From: Roseofilum acuticapitatum BLCC-M154
GTDB taxonomy: Bacteria; Cyanobacteriota; Cyanobacteriia; Cyanobacteriales; Desertifilaceae
Direction: 5' to 3'
Length of the DNA stretch: 55,245 nucleotides
Assembly (NCBI RefSeq): GCF_030068475.1
Contig: NZ_JAQOSP010000037.1
Location: 1 to 55,245 of the forward strand
Program-made: the position numbers and the translations under genes
The notes under the pieces: generated by a model
The model's database searches: none
What the model was told of the DNA's origin: nothing
Seen by the model: the letters and a program-made list of their open reading frames with translations, nothing else
Shown here: positions 4,734-14,039 of the stretch, piece by piece
Layout of the letters: every line of letters begins with the position of its first letter
How positions within the stretch are numbered: position 1 is the stretch's first letter

Positions 4734-5504
4734 ATGATAGCCACCTCCTCAGCCTATAAAATTACTTGGGAAAAACTACCGGAGGACTTTATACTCCCCG
4801 ACGATCCCGTGGATAATATTCATCAACCCGCCCTAGCTGCTGCCCTCACTGAAAGCTTAGACCAAGCTGGAAAATTACCCGAAAAGGCCCTAACGCCCAC
4901 CAACTATGGCATCTGTGCCACCGTCAATGGCAAAATGGTCGTTAAAGCTCCCGATTGGGCTTATATCCCCCAGATCAGCGTTGAGCGTCCAGAAGTAATC
5001 CGCAGTTATACGCCAAACCTACAAGGAGATCTGCCGGTTATTGTCCTAGAATTTTTATCGGATACTGACGGGGGGGAATATTCGACAAAAGCTACCTATC
5101 CCCCAGGCAAGTATTTCTATTACGAACAAATCTTGTGCGTGCCAAATTACGGCATTTTTGACCCGAAAACGGGAGAATTAGAACTCTATCGTTTAGGCAA
5201 CCAGCAACGCTATACTCTGCAATCTCCGAATCCAGACGGACGATTTTGGATACCAGAAATGGGTTTATATCTGGGAGTGTGGCAAGGGAGTCGAGAAAAT
5301 CTAGAGAGCTATTGGCTACGCTGGTGGGATGAACAGGGTAATCTCTTGCTGTGGGGTAAAGAGAAAGTCGAGCAAGAGCGATCGCGAGCCGATGCTGAAC
5401 GGCAGCAAGCTGAAACTGAACGACAACGAGCCGAAACTGAACGACAACGAGCCGATCGCCTAGCCGCCCAATTGCGAGCCGCCGGTATTGAAATCAATGA
5501 ATAA
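4734..5504 (+). CDS. Uma2-family (DUF820) PD-(D/E)XK nuclease-like protein, copy 1
   Basis: The 256-residue protein belongs to the Uma2 family, abundant in cyanobacteria and predicted from its fold to be a PD-(D/E)XK endonuclease. Candidate active-site parts are PDWAYIPQ (Asp about residue 79), VIVLEFLSD (Glu about 104) and the KATYPPGKYFYY lysines. The C-terminal 50 residues form a charged coiled coil with heptad-like AETERQR repeats encoded by a 21-bp tandem repeat. Copy 2 starts 13 bp downstream and is nearly identical except for this tail. No specific partner or DNA target is known, and the family's true role is unproven. Confidence 0.85.
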   Translation: MIATSSAYKITWEKLPEDFILPDDPVDNIHQPALAAALTESLDQAGKLPEKALTPTNYGICATVNGKMVVKAPDWAYIPQISVERPEVIRSYTPNLQGDLPVIVLEFLSDTDGGEYSTKATYPPGKYFYYEQILCVPNYGIFDPKTGELELYRLGNQQRYTLQSPNPDGRFWIPEMGLYLGVWQGSRENLESYWLRWWDEQGNLLLWGKEKVEQERSRADAERQQAETERQRAETERQRADRLAAQLRAAGIEINE

Positions 5505-5517
5505 TGAACCATAAACC

Positions 5518-6225
5518 ATGATAGCCACCTCCTCAGCCTATAAAATTACTTGGGAAAAACTACCGGAGGACTTTATACTCCCCGACGATCCCGTGGATAA
5601 TATTCATCAACCCGCTCTAGCTGCTGCCCTCACTGAAAGCTTAGACCAAGCTGGAAAATTACCCGAAAAGGCCCTAACGCCTACTAACTATGGCATCTGT
5701 GCCACAGTCAATGGCAAAATGGTCGTTAAAGCTCCCGATTGGGCTTATATCCCCCAGATCAGCGTTGAGCGTCCAGAGGTCATCCGCAGTTATACGCCAA
5801 ACCTACAAGGAGATCTGCCGGTTATTGTCCTAGAATTTTTATCGGATACTGACGGGGGGGAATATTCGACAAAAGCCACCTATCCCCCAGGCAAGTATTT
5901 CTATTACGAACAAATCCTGCAAGTGCCAAATTACGGCATTTTTGACCCGAAAACGGGAGAATTAGAACTCTATCGTTTAGGCAACCAGCAACGCTACGAT
6001 CGCCAGTCTCCGAATCCAGACGGGCGATTTTGGATACCAGAAATGGGTTTATATCTGGGAGTGTGGCAAGGGTGTCGAGAAAACCTAGAGAGCTATTGGC
6101 TACGCTGGTGGGATGAAGAGGGTAATCTTTTGCTGTGGGGTAAAGAGAAAGTCGAGCAAGAGCGGCAACGAGCCGATCGCCTAGCCGCCCAATTGCGAGC
6201 TGCTGGCATTGAAATTAATGAATAA
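5518..6225 (+). CDS. Uma2-family (DUF820) PD-(D/E)XK nuclease-like protein, copy 2
   Basis: This 235-residue paralogue of the gene just upstream keeps the same candidate catalytic segments (PDWAYIPQ, VIVLEFLSD, KATYPPGKYFYY). Substitutions are few, for example ILQVPNY for ILCVPNY and RYDRQSP for RYTLQSP. Its coiled-coil tail is shorter by 21 residues, ending RQRADRLAAQLRAAGIEINE. The stop codon overlaps the start of the amidase gene by 8 bp, so copy 2 and the amidase may be translationally coupled. Function is inferred from the family only. Confidence 0.85.
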   Translation: MIATSSAYKITWEKLPEDFILPDDPVDNIHQPALAAALTESLDQAGKLPEKALTPTNYGICATVNGKMVVKAPDWAYIPQISVERPEVIRSYTPNLQGDLPVIVLEFLSDTDGGEYSTKATYPPGKYFYYEQILQVPNYGIFDPKTGELELYRLGNQQRYDRQSPNPDGRFWIPEMGLYLGVWQGCRENLESYWLRWWDEEGNLLLWGKEKVEQERQRADRLAAQLRAAGIEINE

Positions 6226-8153: not shown

Positions 8154-8405
8154 ATGGTTACTCAGGTTAAAGGGATTTATCACCAGGGATGGATAGAACT
8201 GATTGAACTGCCTGATGATTGGGTGGAAGGGAGTTCAGTTGTCGTGACGTTTGTAGGCTCCAATGACATTAACCTAGAGGCTCAGGGAATCACTCAGGAG
8301 GAAGCGGGACGTTTACGAGGAAGTCTAGCCTCATTTGCAGAAGATTGGGAGAGTCCAGAAATGAGTGTTTATGACAACTATGACGCAGCCAAAACCAACG
8401 GTTAG
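8154..8405 (+). CDS. Putative antitoxin of a MazF-type pair
   Basis: This 83-residue protein begins MVTQVKGIYHQGWIELIELP, a beta-rich N-terminus like small antitoxins with a swapped-hairpin DNA-binding fold. It has an acidic C-terminal tail (EEAGRLRGSLASFAEDWESP) of the kind that wraps the toxin. It overlaps the downstream MazF-like gene by 35 bp, the usual toxin-antitoxin arrangement. A strong purine-rich site (GAGAAGAGG) lies 4-12 bases before the ATG. I recognise the context rather than the exact family, so the name rests mainly on position and size. Confidence 0.7.
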   Translation: MVTQVKGIYHQGWIELIELPDDWVEGSSVVVTFVGSNDINLEAQGITQEEAGRLRGSLASFAEDWESPEMSVYDNYDAAKTNG

Positions 8406-8739
8406 TCGGGGTGATATGGCCTTAGTGCTTTTCCCAAATTCTAATCTGACTTCTGCTAAAACTAGACCGGCTTTAATCGTGCAAGCGGATCATTTACAAA
8501 CGGGGTTATCACAGATTATTGTGGCTATGGTGACTAGCCAAATGTTTCGAGCGGGTCATCCGAGTCGGGTGACTGTTTTACTCAATTCTCCTGTAGGAGG
8601 GCAGTCGGGTTTACTGACTGATTCGGTGATTATGACGGATAATTTAGCAACCATATCTCTGGCTGCGGTTTATCGCATTATTGGTGCGATTCCGACATCA
8701 GAAATTGATATAGCATTGAGGCATACACTGGGATTGTAA
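8371..8739 (+). CDS. MazF/PemK-like endoribonuclease toxin
   Basis: The product, about 122 residues, has the PemK/MazF layout: SRGDMALVLFP near the N-terminus, KTRPALIVQAD (strand with the conserved Arg-Pro), then IIVAMVTSQ and the SGLLTDSVIMTDNLATI segment. MazF toxins are ribosome-independent mRNA interferases, inactivated by the partner antitoxin. ATGs at 8371 and 8380 are both possible starts; both lie inside the antitoxin gene, which allows translational coupling. I chose the first. Tandem R3 repeats follow, so the pair is probably a small mobile or islet-borne module. Confidence 0.85.
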   Translation: MTTMTQPKPTVSRGDMALVLFPNSNLTSAKTRPALIVQADHLQTGLSQIIVAMVTSQMFRAGHPSRVTVLLNSPVGGQSGLLTDSVIMTDNLATISLAAVYRIIGAIPTSEIDIALRHTLGL

Positions 8740-8783
8740 AGAGAGAAAACCGATGGACATAACATCAAAAGAATGATTCCCAA

Positions 8784-9091
8784 TTCTTGTAGGGGCAGGT
8801 TTAACCATATTCCCCATATCCCATCCATAACTTCTGTAAACCTGCCCCACCCCTACCAAAATGGTGAGGGCGGGTTCAGGACCTTAATTTATGGGTTTCC
8901 TAAATGTTGGTATAACCCGCCCCTACAACATCGATAATTCCCCATTCTTGTAGGGGCAGGTTTAACGATATCCCCCATTTCCCATCCATAACTTCTGTAA
9001 ACCTGCCCCACCCCTACCGAAATGGTGAGGGCGGGTTTAGGACATTGATTTATGGGTTTCCTAAATGTTGGTATAACCCGCCGCTACAACA
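8784..9091. repeat. R3 tandem direct repeat, 161-bp period
   Basis: Two near-identical units start at 8784 and 8945. Each begins TTCTTGTAGGGGCAGGTTTAA and ends in TATAACCCGCCCCTACAAC or, in unit 2, a variant (CCGCCGCTACAAC). Within each unit, GTAGGGGCAGGTTTA and AAACCTGCCCCACCCCTAC, and GGTGAGGGCGGGTT and AACCCGCCCCTAC, form imperfect inverted repeats. The second unit ends 9 bp from the stop of the minus-strand small gene. No reading frame in it looks coding. Confidence 0.85.
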
Positions 9092-9099
9092 TCAATAAC

Positions 9100-9519
9100 T
9101 TATGTAAACTCAATAAACTTTTTAGCTAATTCAATCAATTCATCCTTATATCCACTAATACAAGAGCGATGTAGGTTTAAGTTCATCTCATCGTCCTCAA
9201 GATCCCCTGAAAAAATTAGGGCAGTATTGTCTACCACATGCACGACAGTCCAAGCAATTAACTTGCCCTCTTCTTCAATCATGCAAGTGATATCCTTCAA
9301 ATTTGAACTATCACCAAAGCTATTTTTTGCTGTTTGAAAAAAATTATTCGCCAATGTAGCAGCAATCCTTTGATCGATTTTCTGGTCTGATGTCAGCACC
9401 ACTCCTCTATTATAAATCAAACCCACACTATCAATATTATTCCGATTTTTGGAACACTTATTGAATACTTTTTTCAGTGCGGCTTTGACATCATCAAGAT
9501 CTTTGTATTCATTAGCCAT
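9100..9519 (-). CDS. Small protein of the NTPase cluster, possible roadblock/LC7-like fold
   Basis: I do not recognise this 139-residue protein with certainty. Its pattern of a helix, IDSVGLIYNRGVVLTSDQ (strand-turn-strand), a helix from about residue 60, CMIEEEGKLIAWTVVHVVDNTALIFSG strands and a C-terminal helix resembles the roadblock/LC7 layout. Residues 100-139 (ALIFSGDLED to YKDELIELAKKF) parallel the end of the neighbouring AAA protein (LIIFWSNLPE to YKNQLYQQISSLF). That suggests a free-standing version of that domain. It is 120 bp downstream of the AAA gene and has its own good promoter. An SD-like GAGGATGG precedes the ATG. Confidence 0.6.
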   Translation of the reverse strand: MANEYKDLDDVKAALKKVFNKCSKNRNNIDSVGLIYNRGVVLTSDQKIDQRIAATLANNFFQTAKNSFGDSSNLKDITCMIEEEGKLIAWTVVHVVDNTALIFSGDLEDDEMNLNLHRSCISGYKDELIELAKKFIEFT

Positions 9520-9559
9520 GATCCCATCCTCATCTATGTACTTAAAATAAGACGCTTGT

Positions 9560-9589
9560 ATTGTAATATTTGTAACAAATTTTTGTCAA
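9560..9589 (-). promoter_or_regulatory. Promoter with palindromic operator before the 139-residue gene
   Basis: Read on the minus strand, TTGACA (9584-9589) and TACAAT (9560-9565) are separated by 18 bp, matching the -35 and -10 consensus at 6/6 and 5/6. Inside the spacer, ATTTGTTACAAAT (9568-9580) is a perfect odd palindrome and could be an operator. The predicted start of transcription is about 9553, leaving a leader of about 34 nt. Confidence 0.55.
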
Positions 9590-9639
9590 TAATCTTTGGG
9601 TTAACTTTTACATCTTCACACAAAAAACAGCAATTGAAT

Positions 9640-11229
9640 TCACCTATGAGAAAACAAACTTGAAATTTGTTGATAGAGTTGATTCTTGTAGCTGAAATAA
9701 AGGGCGTGTTGACTATCATTGCCATCTTTTTCCGGTAGGTTAGACCAAAAAATAATTAAAACTTTATGCTGGTTCAGATCGAAAACATAAAAAGTTAATT
9801 GTTCAATAGTCGTTTTTCGATCTAACTGTATATCAAAATAACGAAGCCATGACTTATGCCAATCACTCCATATATCTGCGACTGTTTTCAAAACTCTATC
9901 TATAATTTTCTCAGTCTCATTGATGTCCTCTTTAAATAGCTGTTTCTTGACTTTGAGGTTGTCAATTCCCTCCGATTCAGAACACAGAGCAACAACCATC
10001 CCATCAATATATCTTGACTTTAAGCCCTTGAACAATATAGGATCGAGATCCTCTGGGATTTCTGGCTCAGACATGGGTTCTGAGATAAGAAAGCTCAGGG
10101 TTTCCTCTATCCATCTCTGATTAAACACCTTTTGATACAGCCGGTTGGAAACGTTAATATAATCTTCAGATTTGGCTGCTAAACCTGATACAATCAAGTT
10201 GATTTGCTCTTCACGACCTCCATCAAAGTAAATTTTATTGACTTGTTTTAACAATTGTTTATATAGCTCTAGAGCGCGGATTCGCTCCTCAACCGTAGTA
10301 TACCCGATTCTATACCATCGTTCCACTTCTTGGAAATGCGAGAGGGTGTCATGACTGCGCCAATTATTAATCAGTTTCTGTTCAAGCAGCTCTTGCACGG
10401 CTGTAGAAATATTGTCATCTCCAGTAATGTTAAGTTCTTCAATACAGAGATTACAGACAAATTGAGTTAAAAATGGCTTACCACCTGTCCAGATGAGAAT
10501 TTCTTGAAATAGCTGTTCAGGATCGCAATTTAATCCGGCTAATCCTTGAATTAAGGCGCTACAGTCCCCCTCATCTAACCGTCCTAATTCAATTCCTTTA
10601 GCTGTGTTGAACGCCACGGCCGGATCGGTTAGAATATCTGTAGGTTTGGCCACCCCCAAAAGCACAAACTTAACCGACTTCAAGGTTTCCTCTTGCCCTA
10701 AAGCTCTGAGCAAACCCAGAAAACTATTTTGCAGCTTCCAAGAGATCAAGTTCTGGATTTCATCCAAGAAAACAATCAGTTTTTCCGTCCCTTTGTCCCG
10801 CAGATACTCCATCAGGTATTTCAGGGATTCTCGAAATTGTAAAGCGGAAGGATAATTAGCCATCTCTTGCGAACGCTGCTCGATATTCTGAGTCAGCATT
10901 CGAGCTTCAGGTGCGGGAAATGTAGCCGCAATCTCCCAGAGTAAACTTTGGCAAAGTGAGGCTTCATTAACTGTTGAGCCAAACCCTTGTAAATTCATCG
11001 TCACGCAATGATAACCAGCATCTTGTAATTGGTCAGCAATGCGAATCATTAAGGAAGTTTTACCCGATTGTCGTGCGGCGAGAATATAACAACATTGTTG
11101 CGTCGTCTCTTGGGTTAAAAATTTATAGAGTGCCCAGTCAGCAAGACGCTTAATATAGGTTGATGCTTCTAAGGATAATGCTCCTCCTTTGACACCTTGA
11201 TAGTATTGTCTCATTTCCTTAACCCTCAT
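9640..11229 (-). CDS. AAA-like (AAA_35-type) ATPase with C-terminal accessory domain
   Basis: The protein is about 529 residues. Walker A is ARQSGKTS (about 52-59) and Walker B is LIVFLDEIQNL (about 151-161), in the arrangement of the cyanobacterial AAA-like/AAA_35 group of STAND-type NTPases. GGKPFLTQFVCNLC and the NRLYQKVFNQRWIEE motif (about 375-390) mark the end of that module. The last 130 residues form a separate domain resembling the small protein encoded next. The frame runs to 11295, but MRVK at 11229 (11-bp overlap with the upstream gene) or MRQYY at 11214 fits better. It probably forms an operon with the HTH-NTPase upstream. Function is unknown; related NTPases act in signalling or conflict systems. 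Confidence 0.7.
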   Translation of the reverse strand: MRVKEMRQYYQGVKGGALSLEASTYIKRLADWALYKFLTQETTQQCCYILAARQSGKTSLMIRIADQLQDAGYHCVTMNLQGFGSTVNEASLCQSLLWEIAATFPAPEARMLTQNIEQRSQEMANYPSALQFRESLKYLMEYLRDKGTEKLIVFLDEIQNLISWKLQNSFLGLLRALGQEETLKSVKFVLLGVAKPTDILTDPAVAFNTAKGIELGRLDEGDCSALIQGLAGLNCDPEQLFQEILIWTGGKPFLTQFVCNLCIEELNITGDDNISTAVQELLEQKLINNWRSHDTLSHFQEVERWYRIGYTTVEERIRALELYKQLLKQVNKIYFDGGREEQINLIVSGLAAKSEDYINVSNRLYQKVFNQRWIEETLSFLISEPMSEPEIPEDLDPILFKGLKSRYIDGMVVALCSESEGIDNLKVKKQLFKEDINETEKIIDRVLKTVADIWSDWHKSWLRYFDIQLDRKTTIEQLTFYVFDLNQHKVLIIFWSNLPEKDGNDSQHALYFSYKNQLYQQISSLFSHR

Positions 11230-12559
11230 GATTAACCAGTGGATGTTCTTGGAAATATTCCTGATACAGCCTGCAACGCACCTGATATTGACCATTTTCC
11301 AGTTTAATTAACCCAGCTTTTTCCAGTTGAAACTTAGCAAATTGATTCACACAGGGTTGCTTTTGCAGAATTTGTTCAAAGCATTGAGCGAGGTTGGGGT
11401 GGTCTTGCAGTAATTTAAGTTTCTTTTGCAAATGCCCAATTAAAGGGCTATCCGGTTGTTTTACTTTGGCTAAAAAATCATTAAGGTTCAGTCCTTCTCG
11501 TTTAATATGATAAAAAGCATGATTGAGTAACTCTGGATATCCTCCTAGCCAGTCTTTGAGTTGAAGGACTTCCTGTTTTCTCCACCTCAGATCGTACTTT
11601 TGAGCTAGAGTTTCAATTTGATTATCTGTGAATTCATGAAGCTCTAAAGGCAAGCCTACATTGTCCAAAGGACTGCCAGATAACTCATATTGGGCATAGG
11701 GTTCTGTGCTATAAGCCAGCAATAGATTAGGGAAGACTAACTGCTGATCGCGACTATTTTTCTTCATGTGCTGTTCATGCCATGAGCGGAGAAGTTGAAG
11801 AAATGGAGATTGAATTAGTTTCAAACCAATGACTTTATCAAGTCCGTCAATAATTAGGGTTTTAGGATCGGGCACTTTAGAAAAAACAAAAGCTTCTAAG
11901 TAGTCCGTGCAACGAATGCCTACAGCGATTTTCTTTTGCCAAAATTCATCTAAACCATCGGACTTACATCTAAATGCTTGAGTGACTATATAAGTAAAAT
12001 TATATAAGAATGTCTCCAAATCTTCAAAAACTGTATCCTCAAGATTCGATAAATCAATACGGGCAACTTGATGTTTACACTCAGTTGATAACCATTCTTC
12101 TATTCGCAGTAATAAACTTGACTTTCCTAAACCCTGTGCGCCCTTGATCCGTAATAATAATCGCTGATCCTCTGGAAGATTTCTAAACTCCAGCTCAATT
12201 CTACTTTGTATGTTTCGCTGTACATAACGAGGAGAATCAACAGTAACAACCCCAGTTAACAAAGGGATAGTTAGCTCTTGCTGTATCTTCGCCCTCAACG
12301 GATGATTCTCCGCCACCATATCGGGGCAATGTTGAAGAAAGAGATTCAGTAGCTTGGGTTGCTTGTTTCCCTTACCTAGGATCTGGAAATATTTGTACAC
12401 CTCTGATAAGTGCTTTCTCACTGTTCCACCAGCGAGATGCTTGGCTTGAGCGATGTCTTTGGCTGACTGTCCGGCTAAAAAGCTCCGAAGGATCTCATAC
12501 CGTTCTGGCGCTGAGTCCTCTAGCTGCTGGAGTAGTTTGTCAAATTGGCTTTTGTCCAT
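11219..12559 (-). CDS. HTH-STAND-like NTPase
   Basis: This 446-residue protein begins with a helix-turn-helix (about 20-60: ILRSFLAGQSAKDIAQAKHL then TVRKHLSEVYKYF) resembling LuxR-type or vWA-MoxR-associated N-terminal HTH domains. A P-loop follows, with Walker A KGAQGLGKSS (about 139-148) and Walker B LIIDGLDKV (about 235-243). GYPELLNHAFYHI (about 345) matches the winged-helix or 'GGxPLL' region of STAND and AAA_35 ATPases. It probably senses a signal by nucleotide-dependent oligomerisation; that is family knowledge, not shown here. It overlaps or abuts the second ATPase gene. An extended -10 lies just before the ATG, so the mRNA may be leaderless. Confidence 0.7.
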   Translation of the reverse strand: MDKSQFDKLLQQLEDSAPERYEILRSFLAGQSAKDIAQAKHLAGGTVRKHLSEVYKYFQILGKGNKQPKLLNLFLQHCPDMVAENHPLRAKIQQELTIPLLTGVVTVDSPRYVQRNIQSRIELEFRNLPEDQRLLLRIKGAQGLGKSSLLLRIEEWLSTECKHQVARIDLSNLEDTVFEDLETFLYNFTYIVTQAFRCKSDGLDEFWQKKIAVGIRCTDYLEAFVFSKVPDPKTLIIDGLDKVIGLKLIQSPFLQLLRSWHEQHMKKNSRDQQLVFPNLLLAYSTEPYAQYELSGSPLDNVGLPLELHEFTDNQIETLAQKYDLRWRKQEVLQLKDWLGGYPELLNHAFYHIKREGLNLNDFLAKVKQPDSPLIGHLQKKLKLLQDHPNLAQCFEQILQKQPCVNQFAKFQLEKAGLIKLENGQYQVRCRLYQEYFQEHPLVNHEG

Positions 12560-13485: not shown

Positions 13486-13794
13486 TTATAAGGGCGATCG
13501 CGCGATCGCCCTTTCCCTTTGCCCTCTCTTTGTGGCGATCGCCTCAGATTCCCCAGCATCTAGCCTAACCTCATATTGCAGATGGTTAACTTGCTCCCGG
13601 TTCACAACAGAGCGAACCTGAAACCAAGAAACCGTTTGAACTTCAAGGGTTCCGGGAACCGGGGGATCGATATCTGCCAGTTCCCGATATACGGCTTCTG
13701 GAATAATGATGGGACTGTAGAGTTGAGGTAACAGGTGTAAATGGGCGATCGCTGCCAAATTCGTTATCACTGAAGTATCGCTAACAACAATCAC
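13486..13794 (-). pseudogene. Truncated PIN-domain toxin (DUF3368-like)
   Basis: The N-terminus MIVVSDTSVITNLAAIAHLHLL, IIIPEAVYREL and LDAGESEAIA match the first two-thirds of DUF3368/PIN toxins, which are usually near 160 residues. Here the frame stops at 102, soon after the central acidic motif, in a HIP1-rich palindrome (GGGCGATCGCGCGATCGCCC). The last conserved Asp and final strands of the PIN fold are therefore missing and the nuclease is probably dead. Only 45 bp separate the stop from the convergent small membrane gene, so the missing end has been deleted rather than frameshifted. It overlaps its antitoxin gene by 4 bp. Confidence 0.7.
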
Positions 13795-14039
13795 AAGCGC
13801 CCCAACTCCCGCAGGTTTCTGACATCCAACTCAAAATCCTCCACATCATAGGAATAAAGCGGGATCTGGCGCTGCTCTAGAAGCTGACGGAACTGATGCA
13901 GTGACAAATTAGCCAACTGAGCTGCATAACCTACAGTTAAGCGTCCGCTTTCAAACAAATGCAACGCAATTTCCTGACGAAACTCATCAGGAGTCAGTCG
14001 AGAAGCTTGCAGGATTTCATCAGAAATAACAATACTCAT
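13791..14039 (-). CDS. UPF0175-family antitoxin
   Basis: This 82-residue protein has the UPF0175 pattern: LTPDEFRQEIALHLFESGRL, then a helix-turn-helix (TVGYAAQLANLSLHQFRQLL), then the QRQIPLYSYDVEDFELDV segment. Members pair with DUF3368/PIN toxins in cyanobacteria. The 4-bp stop/start overlap with the toxin is the normal arrangement. Here the toxin is truncated, so the antitoxin is intact but may be a relic or may act as a solitary regulator. Its start lies inside the 3' end of a small DUF2281-like gene. Confidence 0.85.
   Translation of the reverse strand: MSIVISDEILQASRLTPDEFRQEIALHLFESGRLTVGYAAQLANLSLHQFRQLLEQRQIPLYSYDVEDFELDVRNLRELGRL

What the first reader, a model, noticed from the sequence alone, without database searches (positions are those of the whole stretch)
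9100..12559. Two AAA/STAND-type NTPases plus a small protein that looks like a free-standing copy of one's C-terminal domain
Seen: an HTH-NTPase gene and an AAA_35-type ATPase gene overlap, and a 139-residue gene follows. The last segment of the ATPase (LIIFWSNLPE to YKNQLYQQISSLF) and of the small protein (ALIFSGDLED to YKDELIELAKKF) share order and hydrophobic pattern. Known: STAND-like NTPases with N-terminal HTH domains occur in bacterial conflict and signalling systems. Inferred: the small protein could be a soluble partner or competitor in oligomer assembly. This is my best candidate for an undescribed system in the window.
Basis: partly seen in the sequence, partly recalled or inferred. 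Interest (0 to 1): 0.6.

Follow-up and report, generated by a model that had tools for sequence, protein, structure and literature searches.

The report
NTPase with exchangeable, separately made tail
A cyanobacterial two-gene NTPase locus swaps its tail domain between close relatives, and the tail also appears set to be made as a separate small protein, which suggests a built-in regulator like those of some bacterial immune systems.

Summary
Three genes are real, all minus strand: HTH-AAA_35 NTPase (gene 1), AAA_35 NTPase (gene 2) and a 139-residue protein S. S does not resemble the window's own gene 2 tail (X) beyond chance. Yet in a same-genus genome, G004, a 57%-identical homologue of S is the C-terminal domain of the orthologous gene 2. 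In Roseofilum halophilum that tail is a vWA-like domain at the same locus. DNA comparison shows a cassette swap. Low-confidence models of X and S both rank Roadblock-type folds first. In relatives the usual tail is vWA-like: all 29 readable fused genes of 30 have an in-frame Met at the junction, and 14 of 18 less-redundant ones have a strong ribosome-binding site before it, against 10 of 140 other internal Mets. One genome also carries free vWA genes downstream. Making the tail as a separate protein thus looks like a family habit, met in the window by gene S. Nothing shows that the internal start is used, or any defence function. S was found in 2 of 39 relatives, X in the window only, weak rows aside.

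The parts
11219..12559 (-). gene 1: HTH (LuxR/sigma-like, weak) + AAA_35 NTPase, 446 aa
   Evidence: orthologues directly upstream of a gene 2 in 19 of 19 loci
9640..11229 (-). gene 2: AAA_35 NTPase with exchangeable C-terminal domain; likely start 11229 or 11214 (first-ATG ORF starts 11295)
9643..10080 (-). domain X, the swapped C-terminal domain of gene 2 (Met at 10074 at the junction, no ribosome site before it)
   Evidence: DNA homology to L023 ends at 10081, to G004 at 10121; Roadblock-like low-confidence model; anti-SD +0.2
9560..9589 (-). promoter-like site TTGACA-18-TACAAT (11 of 12), 40 bases before the S start
   Evidence: consensus match only: 16 such sites in the region against 11.2 (sd 3.0) in shuffles, this one the best
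9100..9519 (-). S: 139-aa free-standing protein, homologue of the fused C-terminal domain of gene 2 in G004
   Evidence: anti-SD -8.2; dN 0.24, dS 0.82 against G004
9097..10080 (-). whole exchanged cassette (X + spacer + S) relative to R. halophilum, where a vWA-like cassette sits
   Evidence: homology 13160-10081 (86.6%), break, resumes at 9096
8773..9094 (.). two copies (93%) of a 161-nt dispersed repeat at the 3' edge of the cassette

Best explanation
The locus is a two-NTPase operon whose second NTPase carries an exchangeable C-terminal domain, and the system uses that domain in two forms: fused to the NTPase and free. In most relatives read the domain is vWA-like, and the free form would be made from a ribosome-binding site and ATG inside gene 2. 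In the window the vWA cassette was replaced by a Roadblock-like domain X fused to the NTPase plus a separate gene for a second such domain, S, with its own promoter-like and ribosome sites. Shown: orthology, cassette swap, S = fused tail in a relative, conserved Met plus SD-like site at the junction in relatives. Inferred: that the internal site is used, that X and S are Roadblock folds, that they pair, and that the free domain tunes (caps or completes) the NTPase assembly.
For: S is 57% identical end to end to the G004 gene 2 tail, its start Met aligned with the fused junction Met. R. halophilum has a vWA-like tail at the same locus. Break points lie at domain edges. Junction Met in 29 of 29 readable fused AAA-vWA genes of 30 tried, near-duplicates included; in 18 less-redundant ones 18 of 18, where a stretch of that length elsewhere holds a Met in 23% on average; anti-SD at or below -7 kcal/mol in 14 of 18 against 10 of 140 other internal Mets, P 5e-10; SD cores at the right distance in 13 of 18 against 1.1 expected. 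The peptides encoding the SD differ (LQEDM, LEGDFM, LRRSSM, EKENPM). AAA and vWA distances correlate over 17 genes, Mantel r 0.60, P 0.0005: mostly old fusions, so the site was kept. G101 has free vWA genes; one is 88% DNA-identical to the gene 2 tail and starts at the junction Met. The X model ranks Rag C-terminal domains, MglB and Roadblock proteins (Z up to 9.8), the S model MglB first (Z 5.5).
Against: No expression or protein data. X-S sequence similarity is at chance level. Models are poor (pLDDT 54.6 and 45.6); Foldseek gave nothing usable for S (best E 0.61), and for X the list also holds LuxR-type ligand domains. Robl_LC7 (PF03259) found nothing in 14 relatives, and S and gene 2 do not hit it. 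4 of 18 junctions lack a strong SD. In the synonymous-codon test only 2 of 29 genes fall below 0.05; 20 of 29 are at or below 0.2, the rest higher, up to 0.82. The genes are related, so the P values overstate independence. The window's X junction lacks the internal site and the G004 junction has a weak one (-3.6). S and X are rare.
Confidence: 0.5

Rival explanations
1. S is an orphan cassette: a displaced former C-terminal domain left downstream when X was inserted, as orphan modules lie behind polymorphic toxins; no present role in the complex.
For: The window differs from G004 by X plus spacer between NTPase and S; dS of S against G004 (0.82) is below that of gene 2 (1.31) and gene 1 (1.50), as for a cassette moving by itself, though S is short; free vWA copies in G101, one of them without a ribosome site.
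Against: S has a strong ribosome site, a promoter-like site and an intact frame; dN/dS about 0.29 shows constraint, though this pair cannot tell the fused from the free state.
Confidence: 0.27
2. The junction Met and SD in vWA relatives are relics of gene fusion (the vWA gene brought its own start site), not a working internal start.
For: Free vWA genes begin at the same Met with an SD in L205 (-7.3), G101's 238-aa gene (-10.1) and L189 if its start is Met 60 (-8.9); L187 has -5.6. L206 shows vWA fused to another AAA_35 with the site intact. Most synonymous-codon tests are not significant.
Against: The Mantel correlation indicates old fusions; representatives are 38% identical at the median, yet the site persists in changing peptides.
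Confidence: 0.25
3. X is the effector and S its specific inhibitor, an antitoxin-like pair carried by the locus.
For: Adjacent and exchanged together; RpnL/RpnS precedent (PMC10327210); TA-like genes next door.
Against: No toxin family matched in gene 2; in G004 S itself is the fused tail, an odd place for an inhibitor.
Confidence: 0.12

Closest known systems
RpnL/RpnS genes-within-genes (PMC10327210; abstract, introduction and passages seen)
   Same: Variable C-terminal domain that oligomerises and is also made separately from an internal start
   Different: Rpn is a PD-(D/E)XK nuclease; here an AAA_35 NTPase with vWA-like or other tails; in the window the free domain is a separate gene
Cas11 made by internal translation (Cas10d/Cas11d in the PMC10327210 introduction; Cas11b PMC11899642, listing only)
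   Same: Part of a large-subunit gene is made as a separate small protein, for Cas11d in a cyanobacterium too
   Different: No relation to Cas proteins was seen in the family scans of genes 1, 2 and S (weak CARF rows at E 0.03-0.04 for gene 1); not otherwise tested
vWA-MoxR ternary and STAND/EAD conflict systems (PMC7159879, PMC8195603; passages seen)
   Same: NTPase plus vWA plus exchangeable domains, in cyanobacteria
   Different: AAA_35 rather than MoxR; no VMAP or iSTAND component noted; AAA_35, roadblock, Swt1 and dynamin occur 0 times in the main text of PMC7159879
Polymorphic toxins with exchangeable C-terminal cassettes (PMC3482391, listing only; orphan modules recalled)
   Same: Constant N-terminal part, swapped tail, free tail copies
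   Different: NTPases without a toxin family match; secretion signals were not tested
Roadblock/LC7 (MglB, Ragulator, Rag C-terminal domain)
   Same: Order of elements in the models; top structure matches
   Different: No sequence match; low-confidence models

Membership tests
Genes-within-genes (Rpn-like) | In-frame internal start signals before the C-terminal domain | tested here: met
   For vWA relatives: Met in 29 of 29, strong SD in 14 of 18. Not met at the window's own X junction (+0.2), weak in G004 (-3.6).
Genes-within-genes (Rpn-like) | Short product really made and binding the long one | not testable with these tools
   needs protein experiments
Rpn family | PD-(D/E)XK nuclease N-terminal domain | tested here: not met
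   Pfam gives AAA_35 for genes 1 and 2
AAA_35 (PF14516) NTPases | Score over the Pfam cut-off | tested here: met
   gene 1 253.5 and gene 2 63.5 bits, cut-off 27
vWA domain (tail of relatives) | Pfam VWA match and metal-site motif | tested here: inconclusive
   VWA over its cut-off in L203 (33.0 of 23.8); under it in L023 (18.2), L061 (19.6), L205 (23.4), L206 (21.3); VWA_2 weak in L073; none in L064 and L074. The DxSxS-like site is aligned and conserved in the 10 rows; in L074 and L202 its Asp is Ser.
Roadblock/LC7 (PF03259) | Sequence profile match | tested here: not met
   no hit for S or for gene 2 (X scanned as part of it) up to E 1
Roadblock/LC7 fold | Fold match of X and S | tested here: inconclusive
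   VIA Z 8.7 (X to MglB, 3.6 A, 117 aligned) and 5.5 (S to MglB, 3.8 A, 94 aligned) on models of pLDDT 54.6 and 45.6
vWA-MoxR ternary systems | MoxR ATPase and third component beside the vWA protein | tested here: inconclusive
   no such family among the proteins scanned; most neighbours were only clustered, not scanned
Known anti-phage systems (PADLOC-DB) | Significant model match | tested here: not met
   genes 1, 2 and S: best E 0.00028, 17.9 bits over 32 residues of gene 2 (PDC-S01)

The most novel reading that the evidence does not exclude
A cyanobacterial NTPase family in which the C-terminal module is exchanged as a cassette (vWA, Roadblock-like, HEPN-dynamin) and the module is as a rule co-produced as a free subunit, by an internal ribosome site in vWA forms and by a separate gene in the window, so that free module and NTPase-bound module pair to set the threshold of assembly.
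Probability: 0.35. Interest if true: 0.75.

Novelty: new variant of a known kind. Interest (0 to 1): 0.58.

Why it matters
If the internal start is used, a cyanobacterial NTPase-vWA gene that reads as one protein makes two, and the window shows the same need met by a separate gene after a domain swap. That turns a question on free tail domains in NTPase conflict-type systems (partner, cap or leftover) into a direct test, and would extend the genes-within-genes principle from nucleases and CRISPR to this kind of NTPase.

Tried and rejected
X-S homology by sequence: rejected as unproven. S or X among PDB sequences: S none up to E 10; X three chance rows, best E 0.27. S in viral contigs: 81 stretches matched a pattern, none encodes a relative. 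Phylum search with S: 31 of 386 genomes at E <= 0.1; apart from the window's own gene all rows are partial and at E 0.00125 or worse; treated as noise. X: 32 of 59 genomes match the query, but by the NTPase end only, except one weak row in G020 (24% over 110 residues, one stop inside, E 4.8e-4); in the phylum 4 of 386, the window and three weak rows. Foldseek with the S model: nothing usable. NCBIfam: no useful name. PADLOC. Papers: AAA_35 with cyanobacteria gave 12 papers, none on this system by title and start of abstract, not opened; PF14516 none; internal-start, vWA and ATPase terms 3 papers, passages of one seen. 'Not found in print' rests, in an open-licence library only. A conserved third gene beside genes 1 and 2: in the clustering (19 loci and the window) other clusters were shared by six loci at most. 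Fused-looking frames such as those in G582, G633, G645 and G396 were not read; the 30 genes are those I had fetched.
Full report
What is there. The window (G000:C37) lies in a genome of the same genus as G003. G003 appears to be Roseofilum halophilum BLCC-M91: its contig C97 has the same length, 59594 bases, as NZ_JAQPOK010000097.1, source of L023 (inference). Three minus-strand genes follow one another: gene 1 (12559-11219), gene 2 (ending at 9640) and S (9519-9100). Genes 1 and 2 are AAA_35 NTPases, gene 1 with a weak LuxR-type HTH; S has no family.

The resemblance claimed. The last segments of gene 2 (domain X) and S are collinear but score like shuffled sequences. The claim is not supported by sequence within the window.

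Why it is nevertheless right. In same-genus genome G004, S (57% identity over 139 positions) is the C-terminal domain of the gene 2 orthologue, and the start Met of S aligns with an internal Met at the fused junction. In R. halophilum the NTPase part is 88% identical but the tail is vWA-like. At DNA level the window matches R. halophilum from 13160 to 10081 (86.6%), then nothing until 9096; it matches G004 from 12560 to 10121 (74.5%) and again from 9520 to 9101 (73.8%). The edges are thus the domain junction and, 3', a 161-nt repeat with two copies in the window and matching stretches in L023, one of which covers the last ten bases of its gene 2 including the stop. This is a cassette exchange.

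What the tail is in relatives. In 19 fetched loci (L023, L025 and 17 more) gene 1 lies directly upstream of a gene 2. The 17 are top hits of an order search of 147 genomes; the choice favours close relatives. The tail is vWA-like in 18 of the 19; it is S in L025. L071 and L074 hold two copies, the one next to gene 1 with a long tail that in L071 matches HEPN_Swt1 and, under its cut-off, Dynamin_N. The vWA name rests on weak Pfam scores, under the cut-off in L023, L061 and L073 and absent in L064 and L074, plus the aligned metal-site motif; it is over the cut-off in L203. Of 10 further fused loci (L194-L203) 4 have gene 1; others carry a gene with a weak DO-GTPase2 match (L195) or a piece of the HEPN-dynamin protein (L196, L201, L202).

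An internal start. I tried 30 fused genes, near-duplicates included; one (L204) had no recognisable motif and was dropped. All 29 others have a Met 8-32 residues before the vWA metal-site Asp (Ser in L074 and L202). In 18 less-redundant ones, picked by hand (median identity 38%; three pairs above 60%), a 25-residue stretch elsewhere in the same protein holds a Met in 23% of cases on average; 14 of 18 junction Mets have anti-SD energy at or below -7 against 10 of 140 other internal Mets (Mann-Whitney P 5e-10), and SD cores fall at the right distance in 13 of 18 against 1.1 expected. The genes are related, so these P values overstate independence. Weaknesses: four of 18 lack a strong site, and random synonymous recoding often gives as good a site: only two of 29 genes fall below 0.05, 20 are at or below 0.2, the highest is 0.82. 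Control: 17 loci were scanned; two are vWA family members and three lack the tail motif; of the 12 other AAA_35 proteins two end within 13 residues, and of the 10 that continue two have a Met within 60 residues, the better at -5.6. AAA and vWA distances correlate over 17 genes (Mantel r 0.60, P 0.0005), so most fusions look old.

Free copies elsewhere. In G101 two free vWA genes follow gene 2; the 238-aa one is 88% identical in DNA to the tail of gene 2, begins at the junction Met and has an anti-SD energy of -10.1; the 301-aa one has +2.0. Several genomes hold free vWA genes in other contexts (L187-L193, L205).

S in the window. S has a -8.2 ribosome site, against +0.2 for the Met before X, and the best promoter-like site of the region lies 40 bases before it (consensus only, 16 sites against 11.2 in shuffles). 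Against G004, S has dN 0.24 and dS 0.82; the gene 2 NTPase part 0.16 and 1.31.

Fold. X (single sequence, pLDDT 54.6) has the order helix, two strands, helix, two strands, helix; VIA ranks Rag GTPase C-terminal domains (Z 9.8, 3.4 A, 117 aligned), MglB (8.7) and Roadblock proteins, with LuxR-type ligand domains at up to 7.9. S (two sequences, pLDDT 45.6) ranks MglB (5.5, 3.8 A, 94 aligned) and an archaeal Roadblock (4.8) first, but unrelated rows follow at 4.1. Z under 8 may be a common arrangement. A shared Roadblock fold is plausible, not shown.

Mechanism. Roadblock domains usually pair (established knowledge, recalled, e.g. MP1/p14 and MglB). I infer that fused X and free S pair, and that the free vWA does the like in relatives. 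Whether the free form completes the complex (as Cas11) or restrains it (as RpnS) is open; RpnS (PMC10327210) is the closest in anatomy.

Distribution. S: 2 of 39 relatives, nothing convincing beyond the window in 386 genomes of the phylum. X: the window only, weak rows aside, of 59 and 386. AAA_35-vWA profile: 52 of 388 genomes of the order, counting fused and free vWA alike.

Noticed in passing
window 4734-6225: Two near-identical tandem ORFs (256 and 235 aa) that differ mainly in the length of a charged C-terminal tail.
   Followed up: no
window 8154-8739 and 13486-14039: Toxin-antitoxin-like pairs on both sides of the locus: a PemK/MazF-like protein (PF02452) with a small upstream ORF, and a UPF0175 protein beside an ORF without Pfam match.
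   Followed up: partly
L071 8723-12634, L074 8279-12181: A gene-2-like NTPase with a long tail (in L071 HEPN_Swt1 and weak dynamin matches) between gene 1 and the AAA_35-vWA gene.
   Followed up: partly
L074 4451-6376, L202 2977-4911: The vWA-like tail has Ser in place of the metal-site Asp, as if the metal site were lost.
   Followed up: no
L206 2303-4468: One gene fuses HTH, gene-1-type AAA_35 and vWA, with the junction Met and SD (-10.3) present.
   Followed up: partly
L204 2726-5971: A vWA-like domain (blastp match) followed by an FGE-sulfatase domain, a type of domain reported in DGR targets (PMC10907252, passages).
   Followed up: no
L062 7373-8278: Free vWA gene with a C-terminal zinc-ribbon-like segment (weak Pfam matches).
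   Followed up: no
L195, L192, L205: Gene set around vWA: a P-loop GTPase (DO-GTPase2 match weak in L195, over cut-off in L192), a protein without Pfam match, and dynamin-like pieces in L192 and L205.
   Followed up: partly
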